Origin: a virus | Direction: 5' to 3' (one strand) | Virus record (IMG/VR): IMGVR_UViG_3300009149_000093 | Span: 1-41,189 of that record | DNA length: 41,189 nt | Shown: piece by piece, positions 7,947 to 37,786 of the stretch | How the letters are laid out: the number at the start of each line of letters is the position of its first letter | Numbering within the stretch: position 1 is the first letter of the stretch | Translations under genes and position numbers: made by a program | The notes under the pieces: model-generated | The model's input: only the letters and a program-made list of their open reading frames with translations | Databases searched by the model: none | Told to the model about the DNA's origin: nothing

Positions 7947-8207
7947 CTACACCTTCTTTCTTGAGTCGGACCGAATCCCACCCGTTGCAACCTTGACCGC
8001 CTCCGTGAACGGGATCCCGCACCCCACCAACATGACGATCGTCTTCTCCTCGTGGATAGCCTTGAGGAGAAGTCCGACGGCCTCCCAGCCATGAACGGTG
8101 ACAAGCTGCTCGAGAGCAGCCTCCGTAGGCACGTTGATTCGACTGACCTGCTCAGAGGAGCCGACCTCACCAACCATGAACGCGCGGAGCTTGGCCCAGT
8201 TAGCCAC
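7947..8207 (-). CDS. Hypothetical protein, 86 aa
   Basis: GTG at 8205-8207 shares its first base with the TAG stop of the deformylase gene, and GGGA lies upstream. This start is preferred to the TTG at 8231 that opens the longer frame. The product is helical with a hydrophobic centre (about residues 48-66: VGLLLKAIHEEKTIVMLVG) and a basic end. It could be a small ankyrin-like or four-helix protein; nothing definite. It is translationally coupled to peptide deformylase. Confidence 0.6.
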   Translation of the reverse strand: MANWAKLRAFMVGEVGSSEQVSRINVPTEAALEQLVTVHGWEAVGLLLKAIHEEKTIVMLVGCGIPFTEAVKVATGGIRSDSRKKV

Positions 8208-9046
8208 TACGTCCCTGCCTGTTCCGTGCAATCAGATTGCACGCTGGCCGCTGCTGCGGCAGCCTCGGTGATCCTCAGGGGCAGGCCCCTCTTCTCGGCC
8301 TCCTGCTCCTTCTGACGCTCACGGAAGCGCTTGAGCTGCTTCAGCTTGCCCTTGATCGTGGCCTGACCTACCGGGGAGGCGTAGGCCGTGAAGAGCTTTC
8401 CGTTGAGGTGATCGACCTCATGCTGGACCACCTTGGCCAGTAGCCCGCTGATCTCGAGCTCCGCTGCCTCACCGTCCATGGTGTGTGCGGTGATCTTGAC
8501 GGTGGCTGACCGGGAGACCTTGAACCTGATCGTTGGGAAGGACAAGCAGCCCTCGATCCCGGAGTCCTTCTTCTTGCTGGACTCGGTGATCACAGGGTTG
8601 CAGAGAACCGTAGGAGCACCGCGGCCGGGAGCCACGTCCACCACGATCACTCGCTTGTTCCAACCCACCTGCGGGGCTGCGAGACCTACGCCGCCGTACT
8701 TGTACATGACGGCCAGGAGACGGGCAGCACAACGCTCCAGGTCCTCGTCGAAGACCGTCACGTCCTCCATACGCTCGGTGTTCTTGAGGATTGGATCCGG
8801 GTAGAGCTTGATATCCCAATCGTCGCTGTAGTGGGGCGGGAGCTCCTCTCCGTCCTTGTCCACCAGACCGTTCGGGCTCTCGTCGAGTGCCTTGTCGATC
8901 ACAGCCTGCTTGTCGATCGCAGCCTTCATGGGCTCGTCGTTGAGCTGGGACATGACCCGATCCATGGCCGCGGGGTCCACCCCCAAGCCCATGTCCTCGA
9001 GTGCCTGTGCGGGGAGCTTGACGATCTCTTCGCTCACTTCGACCAC
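8207..9046 (-). CDS. def: Peptide deformylase with N-terminal extension
   Basis: It removes the formyl group from the N-terminal methionine of new proteins, using a metal held by one Cys and two His. All three motifs are intact: GVGLAAPQ (119-126), EGCLS (165-169, metal Cys167) and HEVDH (209-213, catalytic Glu210). At 279 aa it is far longer than the usual 150-180: the normal fold begins near residue 76, so about 75 helical residues precede it, and an alanine-rich tail follows that is partly encoded by a 17-bp palindrome (8226-8242). Phage deformylases are known, especially in cyanophages. The GTG start has AAGGAG upstream and overlaps the MazG-like gene by 13 bases. Confidence 0.95.
   Translation of the reverse strand: MVEVSEEIVKLPAQALEDMGLGVDPAAMDRVMSQLNDEPMKAAIDKQAVIDKALDESPNGLVDKDGEELPPHYSDDWDIKLYPDPILKNTERMEDVTVFDEDLERCAARLLAVMYKYGGVGLAAPQVGWNKRVIVVDVAPGRGAPTVLCNPVITESSKKKDSGIEGCLSFPTIRFKVSRSATVKITAHTMDGEAAELEISGLLAKVVQHEVDHLNGKLFTAYASPVGQATIKGKLKQLKRFRERQKEQEAEKRGLPLRITEAAAAAASVQSDCTEQAGT
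8226..8242. repeat. 17-bp palindrome, perfect copy
   Basis: GTGCAATC-A-GATTGCAC. It lies in the last codons of the deformylase gene, about 20 bases upstream of the next gene's start. Confidence 0.85.
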
Positions 9047-12963: not shown

Positions 12964-14028
12964 CTAGACGAAGGACAGACTAGCAAGATCCTCGGGAGTG
13001 ACGCCAGCGATCGACTTGTTGAACTTGGTCATCCAGCACTCGGGGCACTTGGCCGTGTTCGCAGGGTCGAGCAGGGCATTGGCCTTGTCGACTACGAACT
13101 GACTGGTCCAGAGATCGCGGAAGCTGGTCTCCGAGAGGTCACCCAGGAAGGCTTCCTCGTATTGGCCCGTGTTCACCAGGCGGCAGCAGACGTGCAGCTT
13201 GCCGTCCGCACTGATCGTGGCATTCATACGGCTGGCCCAGCAGGGTAGTCCGGCGTTGCCGACCCCCTCACTGACCACGTCGTGCTTGTAGACGCTCATG
13301 CCGTTCACCGACTCGGGGAGGTCCAGGTTGACGTGCTGCATGTGCTCGGTGCTGAACCAGTCAAAGGCCACAGGCACCTTCACCAGCGCGTAGGTGGCTC
13401 CCATGCGGGAGAGCTTCTCCAAGAAACCTGGCAGGACCTCGAGGCTCTCAGCCGTAGCGATCAGGAACTGGACCCCGATCACGAGATCGGGCCTGGCCCG
13501 GCGGAGGGCCCGAATGTTCGACAGCACCTTGTCGAACTCGTCCAGGTCAACCCGCCGGATCTTGCTGTAGAGCTCGGGGGTCCCGCCGTCCATGCTGACG
13601 CGGACCCAACTGTAGTGCTCGGCGGCTTCAATCATGGACGCTCGGCTGCCGTTGGTGACCAGTCCGACCTGTAGGCCGTTATCGGCCGCCGACTGAACGA
13701 TCAGCGGGTAGTCCTTGTGGAGCGTGGGCTCGCCGCCGCCAATGAAAACGACGCTCTTGGTACCGACCTCCGCGAGCTCGCCCATGAGCCGCACGGCGAG
13801 GTGGGTCCGCATTTTCGCCGGGTACTCTTTCCGGTAGTCGATCTCGCTGCAATACGAGCAGTCGTGGTTGCAGGAGTTCGTCAGGTAGAAGTGGGCGGAC
13901 ACCGGAAACACCCGGTCGGGCCTGCCAGCTATCAGTTGGCGGACCCGATCCGGGTGCGTGAGGATCTTGTCCCCGCCGCTCAAGATTGAGGGCGAGGGTT
14001 GTTTGGCTGTGGGTAGCGGTCTGGGCAT
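12964..14028 (-). CDS. Radical SAM enzyme with SPASM-like C-terminal cysteines
   Basis: Cys53, Cys57 and Cys60 form the CX3CX2C cluster motif of radical SAM enzymes. A GGGEPTLH segment follows (SAM-binding GGE motif), then the barrel. A C-terminal set of cysteines (around PCWAS, VCCRL and CPEC) looks like a SPASM/twitch domain that binds extra iron-sulfur clusters and is typical of peptide-modifying or anaerobic maturase enzymes. The substrate is unknown. In this gene neighbourhood (methyltransferase, glycosyltransferase) a modification of a peptide or cell-wall component is plausible. Length (354 aa) suits the family. No precursor peptide gene was recognised next to it. Confidence 0.9.
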   Translation of the reverse strand: MPRPLPTAKQPSPSILSGGDKILTHPDRVRQLIAGRPDRVFPVSAHFYLTNSCNHDCSYCSEIDYRKEYPAKMRTHLAVRLMGELAEVGTKSVVFIGGGEPTLHKDYPLIVQSAADNGLQVGLVTNGSRASMIEAAEHYSWVRVSMDGGTPELYSKIRRVDLDEFDKVLSNIRALRRARPDLVIGVQFLIATAESLEVLPGFLEKLSRMGATYALVKVPVAFDWFSTEHMQHVNLDLPESVNGMSVYKHDVVSEGVGNAGLPCWASRMNATISADGKLHVCCRLVNTGQYEEAFLGDLSETSFRDLWTSQFVVDKANALLDPANTAKCPECWMTKFNKSIAGVTPEDLASLSFV

Positions 14029-29339: not shown

Positions 29340-32300
29340 TCAATGCGCATCAACCCACCTCTTCGCAACTCCTCCGTCGCTGGTGATTGGAACACTCAAG
29401 GCACCGCTGTCGGCGGTCTCCATGCACTCACCAAGGAAGTCGTAAACGTCATGGGCGATCGGGTCAGGAGCACGGGCCGTCACCTGGTCGTGGACCTGGC
29501 ACGTCATACGCACCTCGTCCCACCGAGGGTCAGACTCCGCACGCTCGAGGATCCCCTGGTGGAAGTTTCGCATGCCGATCTTGAGAAGGTCCTGCGAGCT
29601 CCCGCTGATAATGAACTGGATCCCCTGGGTGATCGCCCGGTAGTCGTTGATCTTCGACTCCTTCATGAGCCGGCGCAGACGACCAGTGATCGACCTCACC
29701 TTCCAGGCATTCCGTTTGAGTTCACGCTCGACCCACTGGTGGAAGTCGACCACGCCGTCGTAGGTGTCGTACCAGCCCTGTAGGAAGGTCCTGGCCTCCC
29801 CGGTCGTCGGAACGTCGGCGTAGGTCCGCAGACGCTTGGGGCCGATCCGGTAGCAGGCTCCGAAGTTAATGTTCTTCGCGATCTGACGCTGGATCCCGAT
29901 TGCGTCCGCGGTGGCCTGGTGAATGTCTACGTGCTGGCACTTGCCCTTCTTCACGAAGGTCTCGCATGCAGAGGGGCAGACCCCTCCGCTCTTGTAGACA
30001 CCCAGCATGATCGGGTCCTCCGACCAGTGGGCCATCATGCGTAGCTCAATCTGCGAGAGGTCACGGTCTACGATTGAGAAGCCCTCGTCCTCGACGAAGC
30101 AGCCACGAATGCTGTCGTGCAGGTTGTCGTAGTCGTCCGGCCTGGGCATGTTCTGCATGTTCGGCCTGGCGCTGTTGTGACTCATGAAACCGTGGGCCTC
30201 GTAGCTGTGGTCCTCCTCGACCTCGATATCCCAAACGTCCTCTACCTGCGCCGGAGCGATTCGGGCAATTCGTGCCCCAGAGCCTCCGCGATCCCCCTCA
30301 CCACGGTAGGCAGCCGCTTGTACACGTCCTCCGTCGTGAACCTGAGCACCCGGTAGCCAAGCTCCTTGGCCTTCTTCTCCTTGCGCTTGTCCCTGCCCTT
30401 GGTGGCCGCGTCCTTCCGGTGCCAGTCCCCGTCCACCTCGACCAACAGCTTCCCCTCCGGCCAGGCGAAGTCCGCCTGCCAGTTCTTGTAGAACGCCAGG
30501 AGACGCCTGTGCTGAATGCCTGCTGCGATCAGAGCACGCGACAGCCTCATTTCTGCCCTGTTGGTGGAGAACGTCAGGTGCCTCCTCTCGACACTTCCCT
30601 GCTCCACAGCGGACCGAAGGGCCGACTCGGCACGCTTCAACCTCGTGGAGAGTGAGATCACCCGCTGGTAGGTCTCTACAAGGACCCCGAAGGACTCCTG
30701 CTCGTCCTCCGGCAGGACACTGATCGCCGGATTGAGAACCTCGAGGGCCTTCATTTCCTCTCCCGAAAGGACCGTCAGCCAGGACAGCGATCCCACCGTG
30801 TTCCTCGCGATCCCGTGGTGGTGCAGATCCACGCTGACCACGGATTCTCCTACCCCCAGACGCGCTGCAATCTGATTGCACGAGAGACCGTCGTCCAGGA
30901 GACCTACGAGCGCCTCCTTCGGGAAGAAGGTCTCCGGCTTGCGCTTTCCCGCGCTGATATGCCGACCCTTCTTGACCGATAGCCGGTCGGAGAACTCCTC
31001 CCCGTAAGCCTGAACCGCTCGCACCATCACCTGGTGAGACACGCCATACACCTGTCGGGCCTCCGACCACGACAGGTTGCTGGCGACGTAGATCCCCTCG
31101 AACGACTCCTTCGAGAGCAGAAACCCCTTGGTCCCCTCTTGCCGAATCCACGTCGGGGAGGAGGGCAGGACCTCGTCCAGGTCCTCGAGCCTCTCCGGTG
31201 TGCCCCGAAACAGGCGCGGGAACTCCCAGCCGTAGATCGCCTTGCAGGTCAACGCAATCCCGTTCGAGAGCCCGTAGTCCGGGATCTTCCACCGAACCGC
31301 CCGCTCGTCCTCCACGAAGATCCGAAGGAACGAGGGCCTGTCGAGCACCCACCTTCGTCCTGGTGTCCCTACGGACTTCCTGAGTCTCACGAACCTCGGC
31401 TCGAATGACCCTGTCGCCGACCCGGAGGTCCTTGAGAGCACGCCACCCACGCTCGGTGAGGAACCTGTGGTCCTTGGTGCAGCGGATCTTGCAGCCATCT
31501 TCGGTCTCCACGTCGAACATGAAGCCCGGACCCTTGTTGGCGAGGTGCAGGATCCGACGCTCACGCCCCCTGTGGGTGACGATAGACACCTGGCGTCCGC
31601 TAAACAACCCGAGTTCTGAGATTCTGATTGAACGTCGATACTGATCGTTTCCTACGCGAACAGAGAGGATCGTCGAGCCGGAGACACAACTCAGCCTCCC
31701 GATCTTCGTCCCCGTCTGGTTGAAGCCCCCGTGGATCCGACCTGTGGGGTTCGTGTTCGCCATGTAGATCAGCTTGTCAATGAACGTGTTCATGGCGACA
31801 CCATGGTGCCGGTACTCGAGCATGTCCTTGATCAGCGGGAACTCATGCTTGAAGAGGGCGAGCACGTCCTTCTTCGTGGAGAGCTCGCCCGAAGCACCGC
31901 GAGGGATCTCACGGTCATTCGCTATGTCGTCGGTAGGGATCCGGCAACGCGCTGCCTCCTCCATGACCTCGTCAGAATCAGGGTCACGAGGCAGCCAGCC
32001 CTCGTCGTAGAGGATCCTCGCTACGTCCTTATCTGAGCCCAGCTTGATATGGCCCATTTGCTCGGTCAGCCTGCGCTCTAGCTTCCCCATGCTCTCGAGG
32101 ACGTTGTTCCGGTGGACCCTACCCAACTGAGGGTCGAACCTCATTCCGGTCAGTTCCATTTCGGCCAGGCAATGGACGAGCGGCATTTCGATCTTGTGGA
32201 ACACGTCGATCACTTCGTCGTCGATCAGGTCCTGCTCGTAGTGATCCCAGAGGGCCCTCGTCCACCGAACGTCCTCCTGCGCGTATTCACCGACAGGCGG

Positions 32301-32771
32301 ACCAAACAAGCCACCCGTCTCGCCGAAGGTGTCCATTTTGTGGCCGAAGTGCTCGAAGACGAGCTTCTTGAGGCCGTACTTGCCTCGGAAGCCCTTCCTC
32401 GGAGAACGGTCCTCATTGACCAGCCAGGACGCGACCATGGTGTCGATCAGCTTGTTCCTGACCCTGTAGCCGCCGTGCTGTCGTAGCCACTTCGTATCGA
32501 AGGACAGGTTGTGGCCGATCATGCTGATCTCGGGGTCCGAGAGTAGCGGCCTCAACTGCTTCATGGTGCGCTGAAAGCTGTGCTCACCGTCCTGTCCGAA
32601 CGCCCAGTACGCCGTCTCGCCGTCCACCTCTACGGCGATCCCTTGGATCTTCCCAGTGTGCGGGTCCAAACTGGCGGTCTTCTTCTGACCCCAGGGCGCG
32701 ATAGTCTCGATATCCAGGGTGAAGACCCCGGCGTCCCGAGCCTTCTTGACGAAGTCCTTTGGGTCAAGCAC
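29340..32771 (-). CDS. polA: Family A DNA polymerase with intein
   Basis: This 1143-codon frame encodes a polymerase split by a 505-residue intein (362-866). N-extein: 3'-5' exonuclease motifs DIE (Asp20, Glu22), GHNLSFD (Asp92) and YAQED (Tyr163, Asp167). C-extein: motif A DLSQIELR, motif B RQIAKNINFG, motif C VHDQV. The spliced product would be about 638 aa, normal for phage Pol I-type enzymes. The intein interrupts RLS/SARPNMQNMP, the conserved template-contact segment. Odd features are HDQ instead of HDE in motif C and Tyr-Arg instead of Tyr-Gly after the O-helix. GTG start with GGAGATC, overlapping the upstream stop by eight bases. Confidence 0.95.
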   Translation of the reverse strand: MLDPKDFVKKARDAGVFTLDIETIAPWGQKKTASLDPHTGKIQGIAVEVDGETAYWAFGQDGEHSFQRTMKQLRPLLSDPEISMIGHNLSFDTKWLRQHGGYRVRNKLIDTMVASWLVNEDRSPRKGFRGKYGLKKLVFEHFGHKMDTFGETGGLFGPPVGEYAQEDVRWTRALWDHYEQDLIDDEVIDVFHKIEMPLVHCLAEMELTGMRFDPQLGRVHRNNVLESMGKLERRLTEQMGHIKLGSDKDVARILYDEGWLPRDPDSDEVMEEAARCRIPTDDIANDREIPRGASGELSTKKDVLALFKHEFPLIKDMLEYRHHGVAMNTFIDKLIYMANTNPTGRIHGGFNQTGTKIGRLSCVSGSTILSVRVGNDQYRRSIRISELGLFSGRQVSIVTHRGRERRILHLANKGPGFMFDVETEDGCKIRCTKDHRFLTERGWRALKDLRVGDRVIRAEVRETQEVRRDTRTKVGARQALVPSDLRGGRAGGSVEDPGLRALERDCVDLQGDLRLGVPAPVSGHTGEARGPGRGPALLPDVDSARGDQGVSALEGVVRGDLRRQQPVVVGGPTGVWRVSPGDGASGSGLRGGVLRPAIGQEGSAYQRGKAQAGDLLPEGGARRSPGRRSLVQSDCSASGGRRIRGQRGSAPPRDREEHGGIAVLADGPFGRGNEGPRGSQSGDQCPAGGRAGVLRGPCRDLPAGDLTLHEVEACRVGPSVRCGAGKCREEAPDVLHQQGRNEAVACSDRSRHSAQASPGVLQELAGGLRLAGGEAVGRGGRGLAPEGRGHQGQGQAQGEEGQGAWLPGAQVHDGGRVQAAAYRGEGDRGGSGARIARIAPAQVEDVWDIEVEEDHSYEAHGFMSHNSARPNMQNMPRPDDYDNLHDSIRGCFVEDEGFSIVDRDLSQIELRMMAHWSEDPIMLGVYKSGGVCPSACETFVKKGKCQHVDIHQATADAIGIQRQIAKNINFGACYRIGPKRLRTYADVPTTGEARTFLQGWYDTYDGVVDFHQWVERELKRNAWKVRSITGRLRRLMKESKINDYRAITQGIQFIISGSSQDLLKIGMRNFHQGILERAESDPRWDEVRMTCQVHDQVTARAPDPIAHDVYDFLGECMETADSGALSVPITSDGGVAKRWVDAH
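30242..31390 (-). CDS. Vsr/DUF559-like homing endonuclease nested in the intein, out of frame
   Basis: This frame is offset by one base from the polymerase frame. The C-terminal 100 residues have the Vsr/DUF559 endonuclease pattern: a leading helix (EMRLSRALIAAGI), DFAWPEGKLLVEVDGDWH with the catalytic Asp and the E-V-D segment, a basic helix with R-D-K-R, and an RVLRFT strand. Upstream are two HTH-like DNA-binding modules (EARQVYGVSHQVMVRA; SCNQIAARLGVGESVVSVDL). The stop at 30242-30244 lies where the C-intein coding resumes. GTG 31390 (CCGAGG just upstream, short spacing) is a tentative start; frameshifting from the N-intein is an alternative. A palindrome (30865-30881) is inside. Confidence 0.82.
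   Translation of the reverse strand: MRLRKSVGTPGRRWVLDRPSFLRIFVEDERAVRWKIPDYGLSNGIALTCKAIYGWEFPRLFRGTPERLEDLDEVLPSSPTWIRQEGTKGFLLSKESFEGIYVASNLSWSEARQVYGVSHQVMVRAVQAYGEEFSDRLSVKKGRHISAGKRKPETFFPKEALVGLLDDGLSCNQIAARLGVGESVVSVDLHHHGIARNTVGSLSWLTVLSGEEMKALEVLNPAISVLPEDEQESFGVLVETYQRVISLSTRLKRAESALRSAVEQGSVERRHLTFSTNRAEMRLSRALIAAGIQHRRLLAFYKNWQADFAWPEGKLLVEVDGDWHRKDAATKGRDKRKEKKAKELGYRVLRFTTEDVYKRLPTVVRGIAEALGHELPESLRRR
30865..30881. repeat. 17-bp palindrome, one mismatch
   Basis: CTGCAATC-T-GATTGCAC; only the outermost left base differs. It lies in the nested endonuclease, at the start of the second HTH. Confidence 0.75.
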
Positions 32772-34204: not shown

Positions 34205-36352
34205 TTAGCGGGCCTTGACGGTGCGCTTCTTGAAGTAGCTGCTGACCTTGGCGTATCCGCCGGACACCAGGTCGTCCAAGCTGTGAAACACGGTGTTGTC
34301 GTCGTAGTACTGGGACACGGCGCTGCTCTGAATGCCGATCCCGACCGTCTGGATCCCGGCCTTCTCGGCCTTCTTCACCGCGAACTTGAGGTGACGACGG
34401 ATCTCGGACTGGTTGCACTCACAGGCTGCTGGGAACCCGTCGCTGAGCACGATCATGCGCAGGTCCTGCTCCCGACGAACTGCCAGACGACGCGCAGCCC
34501 ACATGACTGCCTCTCCGTCCACGTTCTGCGAGAGGCCCACCTCAGCCGCGCGCACGAAGCTGTGCTTGCACTGGGCGAACCGCTTGTCGAAGGGCTTGAT
34601 AATCACGTGCTTCAGCGGCTCCCACCGCGAGAACGTCCCGCGGAGGTCAATTCCCGACCCGGCTGCCCCGGTCGCATAGCCGGTGGTGAACCCGACCACC
34701 TCGTTGGGAATGTCCAGGAGCTCGCAGGCTTCGCTGAAAGCCATGGCAAGCTGGAGGGCCAGCTTGACCCTCGGCCCGCTCATGCTCCCCGAGAGATCCA
34801 CGACCATCATCATGGCGGTGTCGATCTTCGATTGGATCAGCTTCTTCCTGAAGATCGAGCCGACACCAACACCCACGCGGGACAACCTCGCCGGGTCAAC
34901 CCGACCGCTGTCCTGGAACCTGCGCCACCTCTTGCCTCGACCTTGCAGGTCCATCATGAGCTTGGTGCGCAAGAACGCCACGCGCTTGCGAACGTCCCCA
35001 TACCAGGAAGCCGTCATGTCGGAGGGGGTGTTCTCGACCTCAATGATCTCGTCGTTCTCCGTGAACGCCAGATAGGGGCGACCGGCCTTGCGGTGCAGCC
35101 CCTTCATGTTGACCTCGATCTTTCCCCCCATGGCCTCGGACATGCTGGCCTCTTTGGCCTTCTCCCCCGCCTTCCTCAGAAGCTCCTCGGCCTCCGACAC
35201 GCTCATGGCGTCAGGAGCTTCATACTGGTCGCCTTCCTCCTCAGCGTCCCAGGTCCCCTTGGTCTTAGCCCCTCCCTCCTTGGTCTCACGGCCTTCCTCG
35301 TCGGCGTCGAACTTCTTGCGCTTCTCCTTGCCGTGCTTGGTGCTGTCAGAGTCTTGCTCCCGCACCTCGTCAGAAGGATCGAAGTCGTCGTCCTCAGCAA
35401 AGACAGCGTCCTCCTCCTCGTCTTCCCCCTCCTCGTCTTCCCCCTCCTCGGAGTCTCCGTCTTCTCCGTCTTCTCCGTCTTCTCCGTCTTCTCCGTCTTC
35501 CTCCTCGTCGTCTTCGTCTTCTTCCTCGTCTTCCTCCTCGTCTCCAGAGCCGCCACCGCCGGAGCCGTCAGTCTCCGCGTCCTCAGACTCCTCGTCGTCA
35601 GGATCAGGAGGCGCTCCGCCCCCTCCCCCACCACCTTCCGGGTCGTCGTCTTCGTCCTCGTCGTCAGGTGGTTCACCACCACCGCCGGGAGAAGGCGGGG
35701 GAGTTGGTGGCTCGACCAGGTAGTCCTTCCAGACCTTGTAGATCTGTCCGGCCCGACTGACCGCGTCGACAGTGCTGGAGAGCTTGGTCAGGTCGCCAAG
35801 GTGCTTGTCCACCTCGTCAAGGAGATCGCCGACCTCCTTGTCACCTCGGACGAAGTCCAGGGCCTCGGTCTTGGTCTTGCCTTCGGAGAGTTGACCGATA
35901 GCAATGATCGCCTTTCCGATCTGACCAGCCTTGCCCTCCGCCTCCATGGCGGTGAGCCTGGCCTCAAACTCGTCACGAACAAGGTTCCGCGCCAGGTCCA
36001 TGTTGACCCGGCACCCGTGCAGAGCCTCGCCCATGAGCCTGTTGGTCCTGCCCTCCTCGAGGCTCTGTGCGATCACGAACTCCGCTGCGCTCTTGATCCC
36101 CTTCCCCGCTGACGGGTCGGTGTGGATCAACGTCCCGGTCTTGGAGTCGACATACCCTCGGACGATATCGAAAGTGTCCTTCGGTATCTCCTCAGGCATG
36201 GGCGGGAGGTGGATCACACCCCCCTCCAGGTCCACGCTCGGGCTCCCGCTGTCCCACACAATCTTCACGCTCTTGTCGGCAAGCCCGTAAGCCACCGACT
36301 CCTGCGCGGAAAGCAGCTCCATGCGCTGCCTTCCAACAATCTTGTCGCTCAT
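34205..36352 (-). CDS. CobT-like VWA protein
   Basis: Layout of the 715 aa: an N-terminal domain (1-210), a long acidic/glycine/proline linker (about 214-330), a middle domain, and a C-terminal von Willebrand A domain with MIDAS motif DLSGS (519-523) and a later LSDG loop. This matches the CobT/ChlD-type partner of a MoxR/CobS AAA+ ATPase, which is the gene directly upstream (36419-37786). In phages CobS/CobT pairs are common and their substrate is unknown; a cobaltochelatase role is unlikely here because no CobN is seen. The linker holds a 9-bp tandem repeat. ATG with GAGAGGAC about eight bases upstream. Confidence 0.85.
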   Translation of the reverse strand: MSDKIVGRQRMELLSAQESVAYGLADKSVKIVWDSGSPSVDLEGGVIHLPPMPEEIPKDTFDIVRGYVDSKTGTLIHTDPSAGKGIKSAAEFVIAQSLEEGRTNRLMGEALHGCRVNMDLARNLVRDEFEARLTAMEAEGKAGQIGKAIIAIGQLSEGKTKTEALDFVRGDKEVGDLLDEVDKHLGDLTKLSSTVDAVSRAGQIYKVWKDYLVEPPTPPPSPGGGGEPPDDEDEDDDPEGGGGGGGAPPDPDDEESEDAETDGSGGGGSGDEEEDEEEDEDDEEEDGEDGEDGEDGEDGDSEEGEDEEGEDEEEDAVFAEDDDFDPSDEVREQDSDSTKHGKEKRKKFDADEEGRETKEGGAKTKGTWDAEEEGDQYEAPDAMSVSEAEELLRKAGEKAKEASMSEAMGGKIEVNMKGLHRKAGRPYLAFTENDEIIEVENTPSDMTASWYGDVRKRVAFLRTKLMMDLQGRGKRWRRFQDSGRVDPARLSRVGVGVGSIFRKKLIQSKIDTAMMMVVDLSGSMSGPRVKLALQLAMAFSEACELLDIPNEVVGFTTGYATGAAGSGIDLRGTFSRWEPLKHVIIKPFDKRFAQCKHSFVRAAEVGLSQNVDGEAVMWAARRLAVRREQDLRMIVLSDGFPAACECNQSEIRRHLKFAVKKAEKAGIQTVGIGIQSSAVSQYYDDNTVFHSLDDLVSGGYAKVSSYFKKRTVKAR
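35457..35501 (-). repeat. 9-bp tandem repeat in the acidic linker
   Basis: Five units of CCGTCTTCT (plus strand; the last ends CC) encode a Gly-Glu-Asp run in the CobT-like protein. Confidence 0.8.
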
Positions 36353-36392
36353 ACCAATGTCCTCTCTGTGCCGGCGCTCTCCGGCCGTTGGT

Positions 36393-36405
36393 GGGCGTTT
36401 CGCCC
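36393..36405 (-). promoter_or_regulatory. Leader hairpin GGGCG-TTT-CGCCC
   Basis: The same 13-mer hairpin as in the sigma-factor leader, in the 66-base gap before the CobT-like start. It may stop read-through from the AAA+ gene or tune translation. Confidence 0.5.
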
Positions 36406-36418
36406 CCGTTGGTTGCGT

Positions 36419-37786
36419 CTAGTGCTTCAGCTTCTTGGTGTCGATCGTGGTTCCGTACACCCGCTGGTACATCTCAGCCAGTGCGATCCGATCCTCCTCA
36501 GGGACGCGGTTGAGAACGCAGTCAATGAAGCCGTCCTCAGCCTCGTCGCCGTCCACAATGGACAGCGCCCAGTTCATGGTCTTGCGCACGCTGAACGTGC
36601 TGTTCAGCTTCCGCTCGTCCGTGAACCCCTTGCGAGCCAGGTCAGCGACCTTGACGATCTTCTTGGCCTCCTCGAGGTTGATCCCCGTCCGCTTCTGGAG
36701 GATCTGGGCCTCGTAACGGGGCGGCGGGTAACCCAGGAAGTACACCCGGTCGAACCTGTCCAGGAAGGACTCGTTCAGAATGTTGGCCCCACGGTAAAGG
36801 CCCGTCTCGTCGCCACGTCCCAGGGTGTTCGCGGTGGCCACCACCAGGAACTTGCTCTCGAAGGTCTCCACGACCTCCACGACCTTGTCGCTGTCCTCCG
36901 GGTCGGCCTTCTTGACCGACCGCTCCTCGTCAGCCCAGGGCTTCAGGTGCAGCGGGTTACCCTCCTCGTCGTTGACCCCGTCGCAGACCACGTCCTTGGG
37001 GTAAGCAGGTGCGCCCTCAAGGGCACGCTGCAAGCAGGACAACACCTCAGGCGCTGCCATGTCCACCTCGTTAATGATCAACGGGATCTTCCGCAGCATG
37101 GCGTCACCGGCAGGTCCCCAGCGGAAGTAGGTGCTCCCGTCCTTCAGTTCCTTCGATCCCCAGAAGTCGTCCTTGCTCATGTCGCCGTTGAGGCTCATGA
37201 CCATGGGCTCGGTACCGAGTTCCTCTTGGATAAGGATCTCGGCCAGGGTGGTCTTGCCGGAGCCGGTCGGCCCCACAATCAGGATCTTCCTGCGGTGGGA
37301 GATTGACCTGCGGATCTTCGTGGCCTCCGGTGGCATCCAGTGGAAGGGCGTGCCGGAAGGCAGCAGGTGCTTAGGCTCGGCGGGCTCCGCCAGGGCCTTG
37401 GCACCTCCAGGGATCTCCACCGCGATAAACACCGTCTCCTTGCTCTTGGCGGTGATCATGAGGCCGTGGAGCGAACCGAGGTGCGCCACAATGAAGGGCT
37501 TTTTGAACTCCTTCGGCGTGACCCCCTTGGCGTCCAACTCAGCCTTGGACCACCTCTTCTGCGCCTTGAACAGCCCGGCGATCTTGTTCACCAGGTCGAT
37601 CTCAGCCTTCAATTTTGGACTCATAGTTGTCGTGCTCACTTCGTCAGTCTCCTCGGTCACCGTTTCGGTGCCGTCTTCGTCTTTGCTGCTCGGGGACTTC
37701 CCGACAGCCACCGGGACTTTTCCCGGCTCGACCAGGATTGCCTTACCGTCGGCGATCCCGGCCAATGCTAATGCGTACTCGTTCAC
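36419..37786 (-). CDS. MoxR/CobS-family AAA+ ATPase
   Basis: Walker A GPTGSGKTT (172-180), Walker B LIINEVD (236-242), sensor 1 VVATANT (about 315-321), then FLDRF with an arginine-finger context and a helical lid. The 150-residue N-terminal extension is acidic and unassigned. MoxR/CobS ATPases act as hexameric remodelling machines together with VWA partners; the partner is the next gene. GTG start with GGGAG. Two conserved promoters and an alternative hairpin that can pair with the start codon precede it. Confidence 0.88.
   Translation of the reverse strand: MNEYALALAGIADGKAILVEPGKVPVAVGKSPSSKDEDGTETVTEETDEVSTTTMSPKLKAEIDLVNKIAGLFKAQKRWSKAELDAKGVTPKEFKKPFIVAHLGSLHGLMITAKSKETVFIAVEIPGGAKALAEPAEPKHLLPSGTPFHWMPPEATKIRRSISHRRKILIVGPTGSGKTTLAEILIQEELGTEPMVMSLNGDMSKDDFWGSKELKDGSTYFRWGPAGDAMLRKIPLIINEVDMAAPEVLSCLQRALEGAPAYPKDVVCDGVNDEEGNPLHLKPWADEERSVKKADPEDSDKVVEVVETFESKFLVVATANTLGRGDETGLYRGANILNESFLDRFDRVYFLGYPPPRYEAQILQKRTGINLEEAKKIVKVADLARKGFTDERKLNSTFSVRKTMNWALSIVDGDEAEDGFIDCVLNRVPEEDRIALAEMYQRVYGTTIDTKKLKH

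What the first reader, a model, noticed from the sequence alone, without database searches (positions are those of the whole stretch)
30174..31688. Polymerase intein with its homing endonuclease in a different reading frame
Intein blocks A, B and F/G are intact and in frame with the polymerase, yet the region between them codes for a Vsr/DUF559-like endonuclease only in the +1 frame; the intein frame stays open without coding character. Classical inteins encode the endonuclease in frame. Related fractured-gene arrangements with a free-standing Vsr-like endonuclease between split-intein halves are known from environmental sequences, but here the intein frame is continuous, so an overprinted or transition form between cis and split intein is possible. 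Whether splicing is cis, trans, or needs frameshifting is unclear.
Basis: partly seen in the sequence, partly recalled or inferred. Interest (0 to 1): 0.9.

Follow-up and report, generated by a model that had tools for sequence, protein, structure and literature searches.

The report
Inteins with an overprinted endonuclease gene
A self-splicing protein insert (intein) in a phage DNA polymerase carries the gene for its DNA-cutting spreading enzyme on the same bases but in another reading frame, and the same layout recurs in at least eleven other phage sequences (three polymerases and eight helicases), so it is a conserved and apparently overlooked way of building mobile inteins rather than a sequencing error.

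Summary
The intein (30174-31688, minus strand) has intact splicing blocks in frame with a family-A polymerase. A DUF559/Vsr-like endonuclease is coded in the +1 frame between them, and the intein frame stays open for 385 codons. It is neither error nor chance: three IMG/VR relatives (endonucleases 57-73% identical) share the layout; endonuclease dN/dS is 0.20-0.45; the host frame has 0 stops in all four, where codon shuffles expect 7.3, 11.5, 2.6 and 13.4. The linker keeps only the no-stop condition. A related polymerase has a 134-aa mini-intein at this site; others are empty. A second family found on the way has the same design in helicase inteins of cultured Vibrio, Pseudomonas and Corynebacterium phages (0 stops against 5-14 expected in seven genomes). 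Best reading: a cis-splicing intein whose disordered linker is the overlapping frame of a nested, separately translated homing endonuclease gene, probably started at an internal Shine-Dalgarno/ATG. In +1 every host stop begins at an endonuclease wobble base and can be removed by a synonymous T-to-C change, which explains the frame. Splicing, start site and cleavage are inferred, not shown.

The parts
29340..32771 (-). DNA polymerase I-like (family A) gene interrupted by the intein; continuous 1143-aa ORF, GTG start
   Evidence: DNA_pol_A 6.8e-56, DNA_pol_A_exo1 6.1e-14
31689..32771 (-). N-extein (361 aa), ending ...GRLS
30174..31688 (-). Intein, 505 aa, inserted between RLS and S of the polymerase motif RLSS...PN.QN.P
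   Evidence: empty site in L023/L024
31401..31688 (-). N-terminal Hint half, 96 aa (blocks A and B; Cys1, CTKDH)
30246..31400 (-). Linker of 385 codons, open in the intein frame, amino-acid sequence not under selection; overlapped by the endonuclease gene
30174..30245 (-). C-terminal Hint half, 24 aa (blocks F and G, ending HN, then +1 Ser)
29340..30173 (-). C-extein (277 aa and stop)
30242..31498 (-). Nested DUF559 homing endonuclease ORF in the +1 frame; 418 aa from the first ATG (31498) to its own stop (30244-30242)
31506..31509 (-). GGAG, Shine-Dalgarno-like, 7 nt before the candidate ATG at 31498; a Shine-Dalgarno-like site precedes the first ATG in the three relatives too
   Evidence: duplex energy -6.4 to -8.6
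31388..31390 (-). Alternative start GTG (..FEPRF-V-RLRK), present in all four relatives but at most 3 nt after a GAGG
30278..30538 (-). DUF559 nuclease domain of the nested ORF
   Evidence: 8.3e-10; nearest solved structures 3hrl and 3r3p (I-Bth0305I)
30833..30907 (-). Weak helix-turn-helix (HTH_23) in the presumed DNA-binding part of the nested ORF
   Evidence: 0.0024

Best explanation
This is a cis-splicing mobile intein in which the homing endonuclease is not a domain of the intein but a separate gene nested in it, in the +1 frame. Ribosomes on the polymerase message read straight through: Hint N half, a long low-complexity linker, Hint C half. The Hint halves splice out the 505-aa intein and join the 638-aa polymerase. 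Other ribosomes start inside the message, most likely at the ATG at 31498 behind a Shine-Dalgarno-like sequence embedded in the Hint N half, and make the free DUF559 endonuclease. That enzyme cuts intein-less RLS/S alleles so that the whole element is copied in. Selection on the linker is only to contain no stop codon. In the +1 frame every host-frame stop (TAA/TAG/TGA) starts at the third base of an endonuclease codon, and NNT to NNC is always synonymous, so stops can be purged without changing the endonuclease; the other frame has unavoidable stops. Shown: both frames, purifying selection on the endonuclease, stop avoidance, conservation, recurrence, presence/absence at one site. Inferred: splicing, the start codon, endonuclease activity and homing.
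For: Hint blocks in frame and DUF559 in +1. Same layout in L001, L002, L009. Host-frame stops 0 against about 7.3, 11.5, 2.6 and 13.4 expected; the same test on other genes of these genomes gives observed/expected ratios 0.56-1.03. T-ending codons before AA/AG/GA codons are 0/76, 0/75, 0/62 and 0/84 against 9-23% elsewhere. Endonuclease dN/dS 0.20-0.45, linker-frame pN/pS 1.2-1.8. Third-position variability follows the endonuclease frame in the body and the Hint frame in the overlapped ends. Mini-intein of 134 aa at the same site in L028. Empty alleles L023/L024. Endonuclease 56-59% and Hint N 57-77% identical among window, L001 and L002 while N-exteins are 31-43% and C-exteins 33-54%, which fits transfer between polymerases. 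The nuclease resembles the homing endonuclease I-Bth0305I. Recurrence in helicase inteins: eight loci, all +1, host CDS without internal stops; seven of them shuffle-tested, 0 stops against 4.7-13.7 expected. Unavoidable stops: 0 in the host frame, 1-5 in the other.
Against: No expression, splicing or cleavage data. The start codon is not settled: a GTG is also conserved in all four, and Shine-Dalgarno strength at the ATG is only moderate in the window (29th percentile of background starts). The L002 openness alone is not significant (P = 0.05). AlphaFold models are poor (mean pLDDT 35 for the intein frame, 57 for the endonuclease), so the folds are not proven.
Confidence: 0.82

Rival explanations
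1. Programmed +1 frameshifting near the end of block B makes an N-extein/Hint-N/endonuclease fusion from some ribosomes, while the rest read through to the spliceable precursor.
For: The endonuclease frame is +1 in all loci, and nearly identical nucleotide stretches (GGGTGGCGTGMTCTCAAGGAC and TTCGAGCCGAG) lie at the junction in the four polymerase inteins.
Against: No recognised slippery sequence was seen by eye; Shine-Dalgarno-like plus ATG pairs precede the nested ORF in both families, clearest in CP-T1 and MR14; the endonuclease frame is open and partly conserved upstream of the junction from the ATG, which frameshifting would not need.
Confidence: 0.1
2. Split (trans-splicing) intein with a free-standing endonuclease between the halves, as in fractured genes, here with the stop codons between the halves lost.
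For: Same nuclease superfamily as reported for fractured genes, and real fractured forms exist in related inteins (terminases of Lactobacillus phage CL2 and Brochothrix phage BL3).
Against: Host frame without a single stop in twelve loci and shown to be selected for this; trans-splicing would not need an open linker; the endonuclease-less L028 form is a plain cis mini-intein.
Confidence: 0.03
3. The endonuclease region is removed as RNA (group I/II intron inside the intein) and the open frame is incidental.
For: Phage introns often carry such endonucleases.
Against: No Rfam intron match; an RNA intron would not select for an open frame, yet stops are avoided strongly.
Confidence: 0.01
4. Overprinted but decayed: the intein splices, and the endonuclease is a relic no longer expressed.
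For: Homing endonucleases commonly decay after fixation (general knowledge); no expression data.
Against: Endonuclease dN/dS 0.20-0.45 in all pairs and an intact ORF in all loci; D343, E354, D356 and H360 of the nuclease invariant.
Confidence: 0.04

Closest known systems
[quoted passage not shown]
   Same: Endonuclease in another frame of a phage gene, host frame without stops, internal start proposed, spread between phages
   Different: That paper finds no splicing domain and predicts that the insert stays in the protein; its nuclease is HNH. Here the insert has intact Hint intein halves and the nuclease is DUF559
Fractured genes: split inteins with a free-standing Vsr-like/EDxHD endonuclease between the halves (Dassa et al. 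2009; from own knowledge and its citation in PMC12350094; full text not held)
   Same: Endonuclease of a related superfamily is a separate gene between the two Hint halves
   Different: Here the intein frame is continuous and under selection to stay open, so the intein can splice in cis
Classical large inteins with an in-frame LAGLIDADG or HNH endonuclease domain (e.g. other inteins in L009, L029, L007)
   Same: Hint blocks A, B, F, G; endonuclease placed at the same point between B and F
   Different: Endonuclease is out of frame and presumably a separate protein
I-Bth0305I, EDxHD homing endonuclease (PDB 3r3p)
   Same: Best fold match of the nuclease domain (Foldseek prob 1.00, TM 0.72 by target length, E 0.02) and second sequence match in the PDB
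   Different: Our proteins score clearly only with DUF559 (8e-10); the sequence match to I-Bth0305I is weak
Helicase inteins of Vibrio phages CP-T1 and K391, Pseudomonas phage MR14, Corynebacterium phage phi673
   Same: Identical architecture: DUF559 endonuclease in +1 inside the intein, host frame open
   Different: Host gene is a ResIII/DEAD-type helicase and the DNA-binding part is Cys-rich; annotated in the records only as one helicase or other single CDS

Membership tests
Class 1 cis-splicing intein | Blocks A (Cys1), B (TxxH), F, G (HN) and +1 Ser/Thr/Cys in one frame with both exteins | tested here: met
   CVSG..., CTKDH...VWDIEV..., MSHN then S; Pfam Intein_splicing 37.1 bits against a cutoff of 35.8
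Class 1 cis-splicing intein | Splicing activity | not testable with these tools
   needs expression; supported only by the natural 134-aa mini-intein L028
Classical endonuclease-containing intein | Endonuclease in the intein reading frame | tested here: not met
   DUF559 only in +1
Fractured gene / split intein | Gene broken into two ORFs, intein halves on separate proteins | tested here: not met
   one 1143-aa ORF; no stop in the linker of the four polymerase inteins
DUF559 (PF04480) nuclease | Profile match above the gathering score and conserved D...ExD...H core | tested here: met
   39 bits against a cutoff of 20.6, 4 of 4 members match; D343, E354, D356, H360 invariant
EDxHD homing endonuclease (I-Bth0305I) | EDxHD catalytic motif | tested here: inconclusive
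   fold match, weak sequence match 0.013; catalytic residues not mapped one to one
Overlapping (overprinted) gene pair | Both frames under selection | tested here: met
   endonuclease frame: dN/dS 0.20-0.45; host frame: selection against stops only
Group I/II intron | Ribozyme core | tested here: not met
   no Rfam family at gathering threshold in the window
Mobile (homing) element | Presence/absence at one conserved site in related genes | tested here: met
   full form, mini-intein, unrelated inteins one residue upstream and empty alleles at RLS/S

The most novel reading that the evidence does not exclude
Overprinted-endonuclease inteins are a recurrent, stable architecture of phage inteins: an endonuclease gene enters an intein in the +1 frame, the only frame in which host stops can be purged by wobble changes alone, and thereafter the intein linker is just the overlapping frame of a separate gene. 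It would link free-standing endonuclease genes, fractured genes and classical inteins, and it is overlooked because annotators call one CDS.
Probability: 0.7. Interest if true: 0.9.

Novelty: new variant of a known kind. Interest (0 to 1): 0.86.

Why it matters
It separates the two jobs of a mobile intein into two frames of the same DNA, so that intein splicing and endonuclease evolution are uncoupled. It gives a concrete route by which a free endonuclease gene can enter an intein without being fused to it, which bears on how endonucleases and inteins came together. It suggests a simple rule for long same-strand gene overlaps (+1, stops cleared at the wobble base). It is directly testable in cultured phages such as phi673 of Corynebacterium glutamicum, and it indicates that about 40 deposited phage records miss a gene.

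Tried and rejected
Sequencing error: rejected by three independent relatives and by eight loci of cultured phages. Chance openness from high GC: rejected by codon shuffles, by control genes and by the AT-richer Vibrio phages. Group I/II intron: no Rfam hit. Structure prediction of the 505-aa intein frame gave pLDDT 35 and only shows strands at the two Hint ends; not used as proof of fold. A search for the endonuclease in bacterial genomes gave only weak, free-standing DUF559 genes, used as controls. A tblastn search of the window endonuclease against phages found nothing; the helicase family was found instead through Hint-half matches. The preprint of Gosselin et al. 2025 on actinobacteriophage inteins with non-canonical architecture and the Dassa 2009 paper could not be read. 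A search of prokaryote genomes by family name failed on tool syntax and was not repeated.

Full report
Observation. On the minus strand of the window, ORF 32771-29340 encodes a family-A DNA polymerase of 1143 aa. Residues 362-866 are an intein: it starts CVSG, has CTKDH in block B, VWDIEV in block F and MSHN followed by S, and Pfam Intein_splicing spans both halves. Its DNA is exactly 31688-30174. The two Hint halves are 96 and 24 aa; the 385 codons between them have no Pfam match of their own. In the +1 frame the same DNA codes for a protein whose C-terminal 100 residues match DUF559 (7.4e-10) and which has its own stop at 30242.

Is it real and more than chance? Scans of IMG/VR with the endonuclease found three relatives: L001 and L002 and L009. 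In each the polymerase-intein ORF runs straight through and the endonuclease is in +1. A sequencing error is therefore excluded. To test chance openness I shuffled the endonuclease codons among identical amino acids: 7.3, 11.5, 2.6 and 13.4 stops are expected in the intein frame, 0 are found in each. Other genes of the same genomes show the expected number or a mild deficit (ratios 0.80, 1.03, 0.56, 0.90). The signal lies where it should: codons ending in T are absent before codons starting AA, AG or GA (0 of 297 in the four together) but make up 9-23% elsewhere. Eight free-standing DUF559 genes do have stops in the corresponding frame.

What is selected? Endonuclease dN/dS is 0.20-0.45 with dS 0.8-1.7; in the linker frame pN/pS is 1.2-1.8. 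Variability is highest at endonuclease third positions in the body, but follows the Hint frame in the two ends where Hint and endonuclease overlap. So the endonuclease is kept as a protein, while the linker is kept only free of stops. That is what is expected if ribosomes must read through it to make polymerase. AlphaFold shows strands only at the Hint ends and nothing in the linker (low confidence).

The site. L028, whose polymerase resembles that of L002, carries a 134-aa mini-intein at the same position, with a short linker where the others have the endonuclease. L023 and L024 have an empty RLSS site; L029 and L083 have unrelated inteins one residue upstream. Among window, L001 and L002, Hint N (57-77%) and endonuclease (56-59%) are more alike than N-exteins (31-43%) and C-exteins (33-54%). 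This fits a mobile element.

A second family. Checking the nearest Hint halves in cultured phages for hidden ORFs turned up Vibrio phage Rostov M3/CP-T1: its annotated helicase has an intein, and a 249-aa ORF inside it in +1 is DUF559 (1.1e-11). tblastn with this protein gave 40 phage records, 37 from Vibrio, two of Corynebacterium phage phi673 and one of Pseudomonas phage MR14, with the match lying under one gene annotated as helicase or otherwise as a single CDS. In the eight loci I opened, the host CDS has no internal stop and the endonuclease is always +1; Pfam finds Hint/Intein_splicing and helicase domains in one frame and DUF559 in the other in the ones scanned. In seven shuffle-tested genomes 4.7-13.7 stops are expected and 0 found, while the helicase exteins of the same genes show no deficit. 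In CP-T1 and MR14 the ORF starts MKC.. behind GACGAGGTTTT, a Shine-Dalgarno-like sequence written in the block-B codons. The two families share the nuclease domain (hhalign probability 69, E 4.5e-5) but apparently not the DNA-binding part; whether they descend from one overprinted ancestor is open.

Why +1? With the endonuclease at +1, each host codon consists of an endonuclease third base followed by the first two bases of the next codon. A host stop needs T at the wobble base, and NNT to NNC is always synonymous, so host stops can be cleared at no cost. In the remaining frame 1-5 stops per protein cannot be avoided by any synonymous choice. This is inference from the code, and it agrees with 12 of 12 loci.

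How it most likely works. The polymerase message gives two products: the precursor that splices in cis, and a free endonuclease from an internal start. For the window the best start is ATG 31498, 7 nt after GGAG; a first ATG with a Shine-Dalgarno-like sequence lies within one codon of the same place in the relatives. Conserved nucleotide stretches between this ATG and the body fit double coding there. A GTG at 31390 is the alternative. The endonuclease then drives homing into the empty RLS/S site. Splicing, start site, activity and homing were not tested.

Known relatives. Out-of-frame endonucleases without an intein were described in mycobacteriophage methylases (PMC11855218). Free-standing Vsr-like endonucleases between split-intein halves are the fractured genes of Dassa et al. 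2009 (own knowledge). The present architecture, a continuous and stop-purged intein over a +1 endonuclease gene, was not found in the searchable literature, but two relevant papers could not be read, so priority is not certain. It is filed as a new variant of a known kind.

Noticed in passing
L009:2783-10177: Phage polymerase ORF of 2464 aa with four inteins: the overprinted one, one HNH and two with LAGLIDADG-type domains.
   Followed up: partly
L114:506-2771 (Lactobacillus phage CL2) and L115:709-2604 (Brochothrix phage BL3): Large terminase broken into an N part with a Hint N half and a separate C part with a Hint C half, with an intact HNH endonuclease gene (CL2, overlapping the C part) or an HNH-like remnant (BL3) between: fractured genes with HNH instead of a Vsr-like nuclease.
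   Followed up: partly
L029 and L083: Unrelated inteins inserted one residue upstream of the site used by the window intein in related polymerases.
   Followed up: no
L112:2302-5283 and related Vibrio, Pseudomonas, Corynebacterium phage records: About 40 public records carry an unannotated DUF559 endonuclease gene inside a helicase intein.
   Followed up: yes
window 34205-37786: CobT-like and CobS/porphyrin-biosynthesis-like phage genes next to the polymerase (PHROGs matches).
   Followed up: no
window 8207-9046 and 12964-14028: A peptide deformylase and a radical SAM/SPASM protein encoded by the phage.
   Followed up: no
window 31395-31448: Nearly identical nucleotide stretches GGGTGGCGTGMTCTCAAGGAC and TTCGAGCCGAG in all four polymerase inteins, more conserved than neighbouring codons; double coding is the likely cause but an RNA or DNA signal is possible.
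   Followed up: partly
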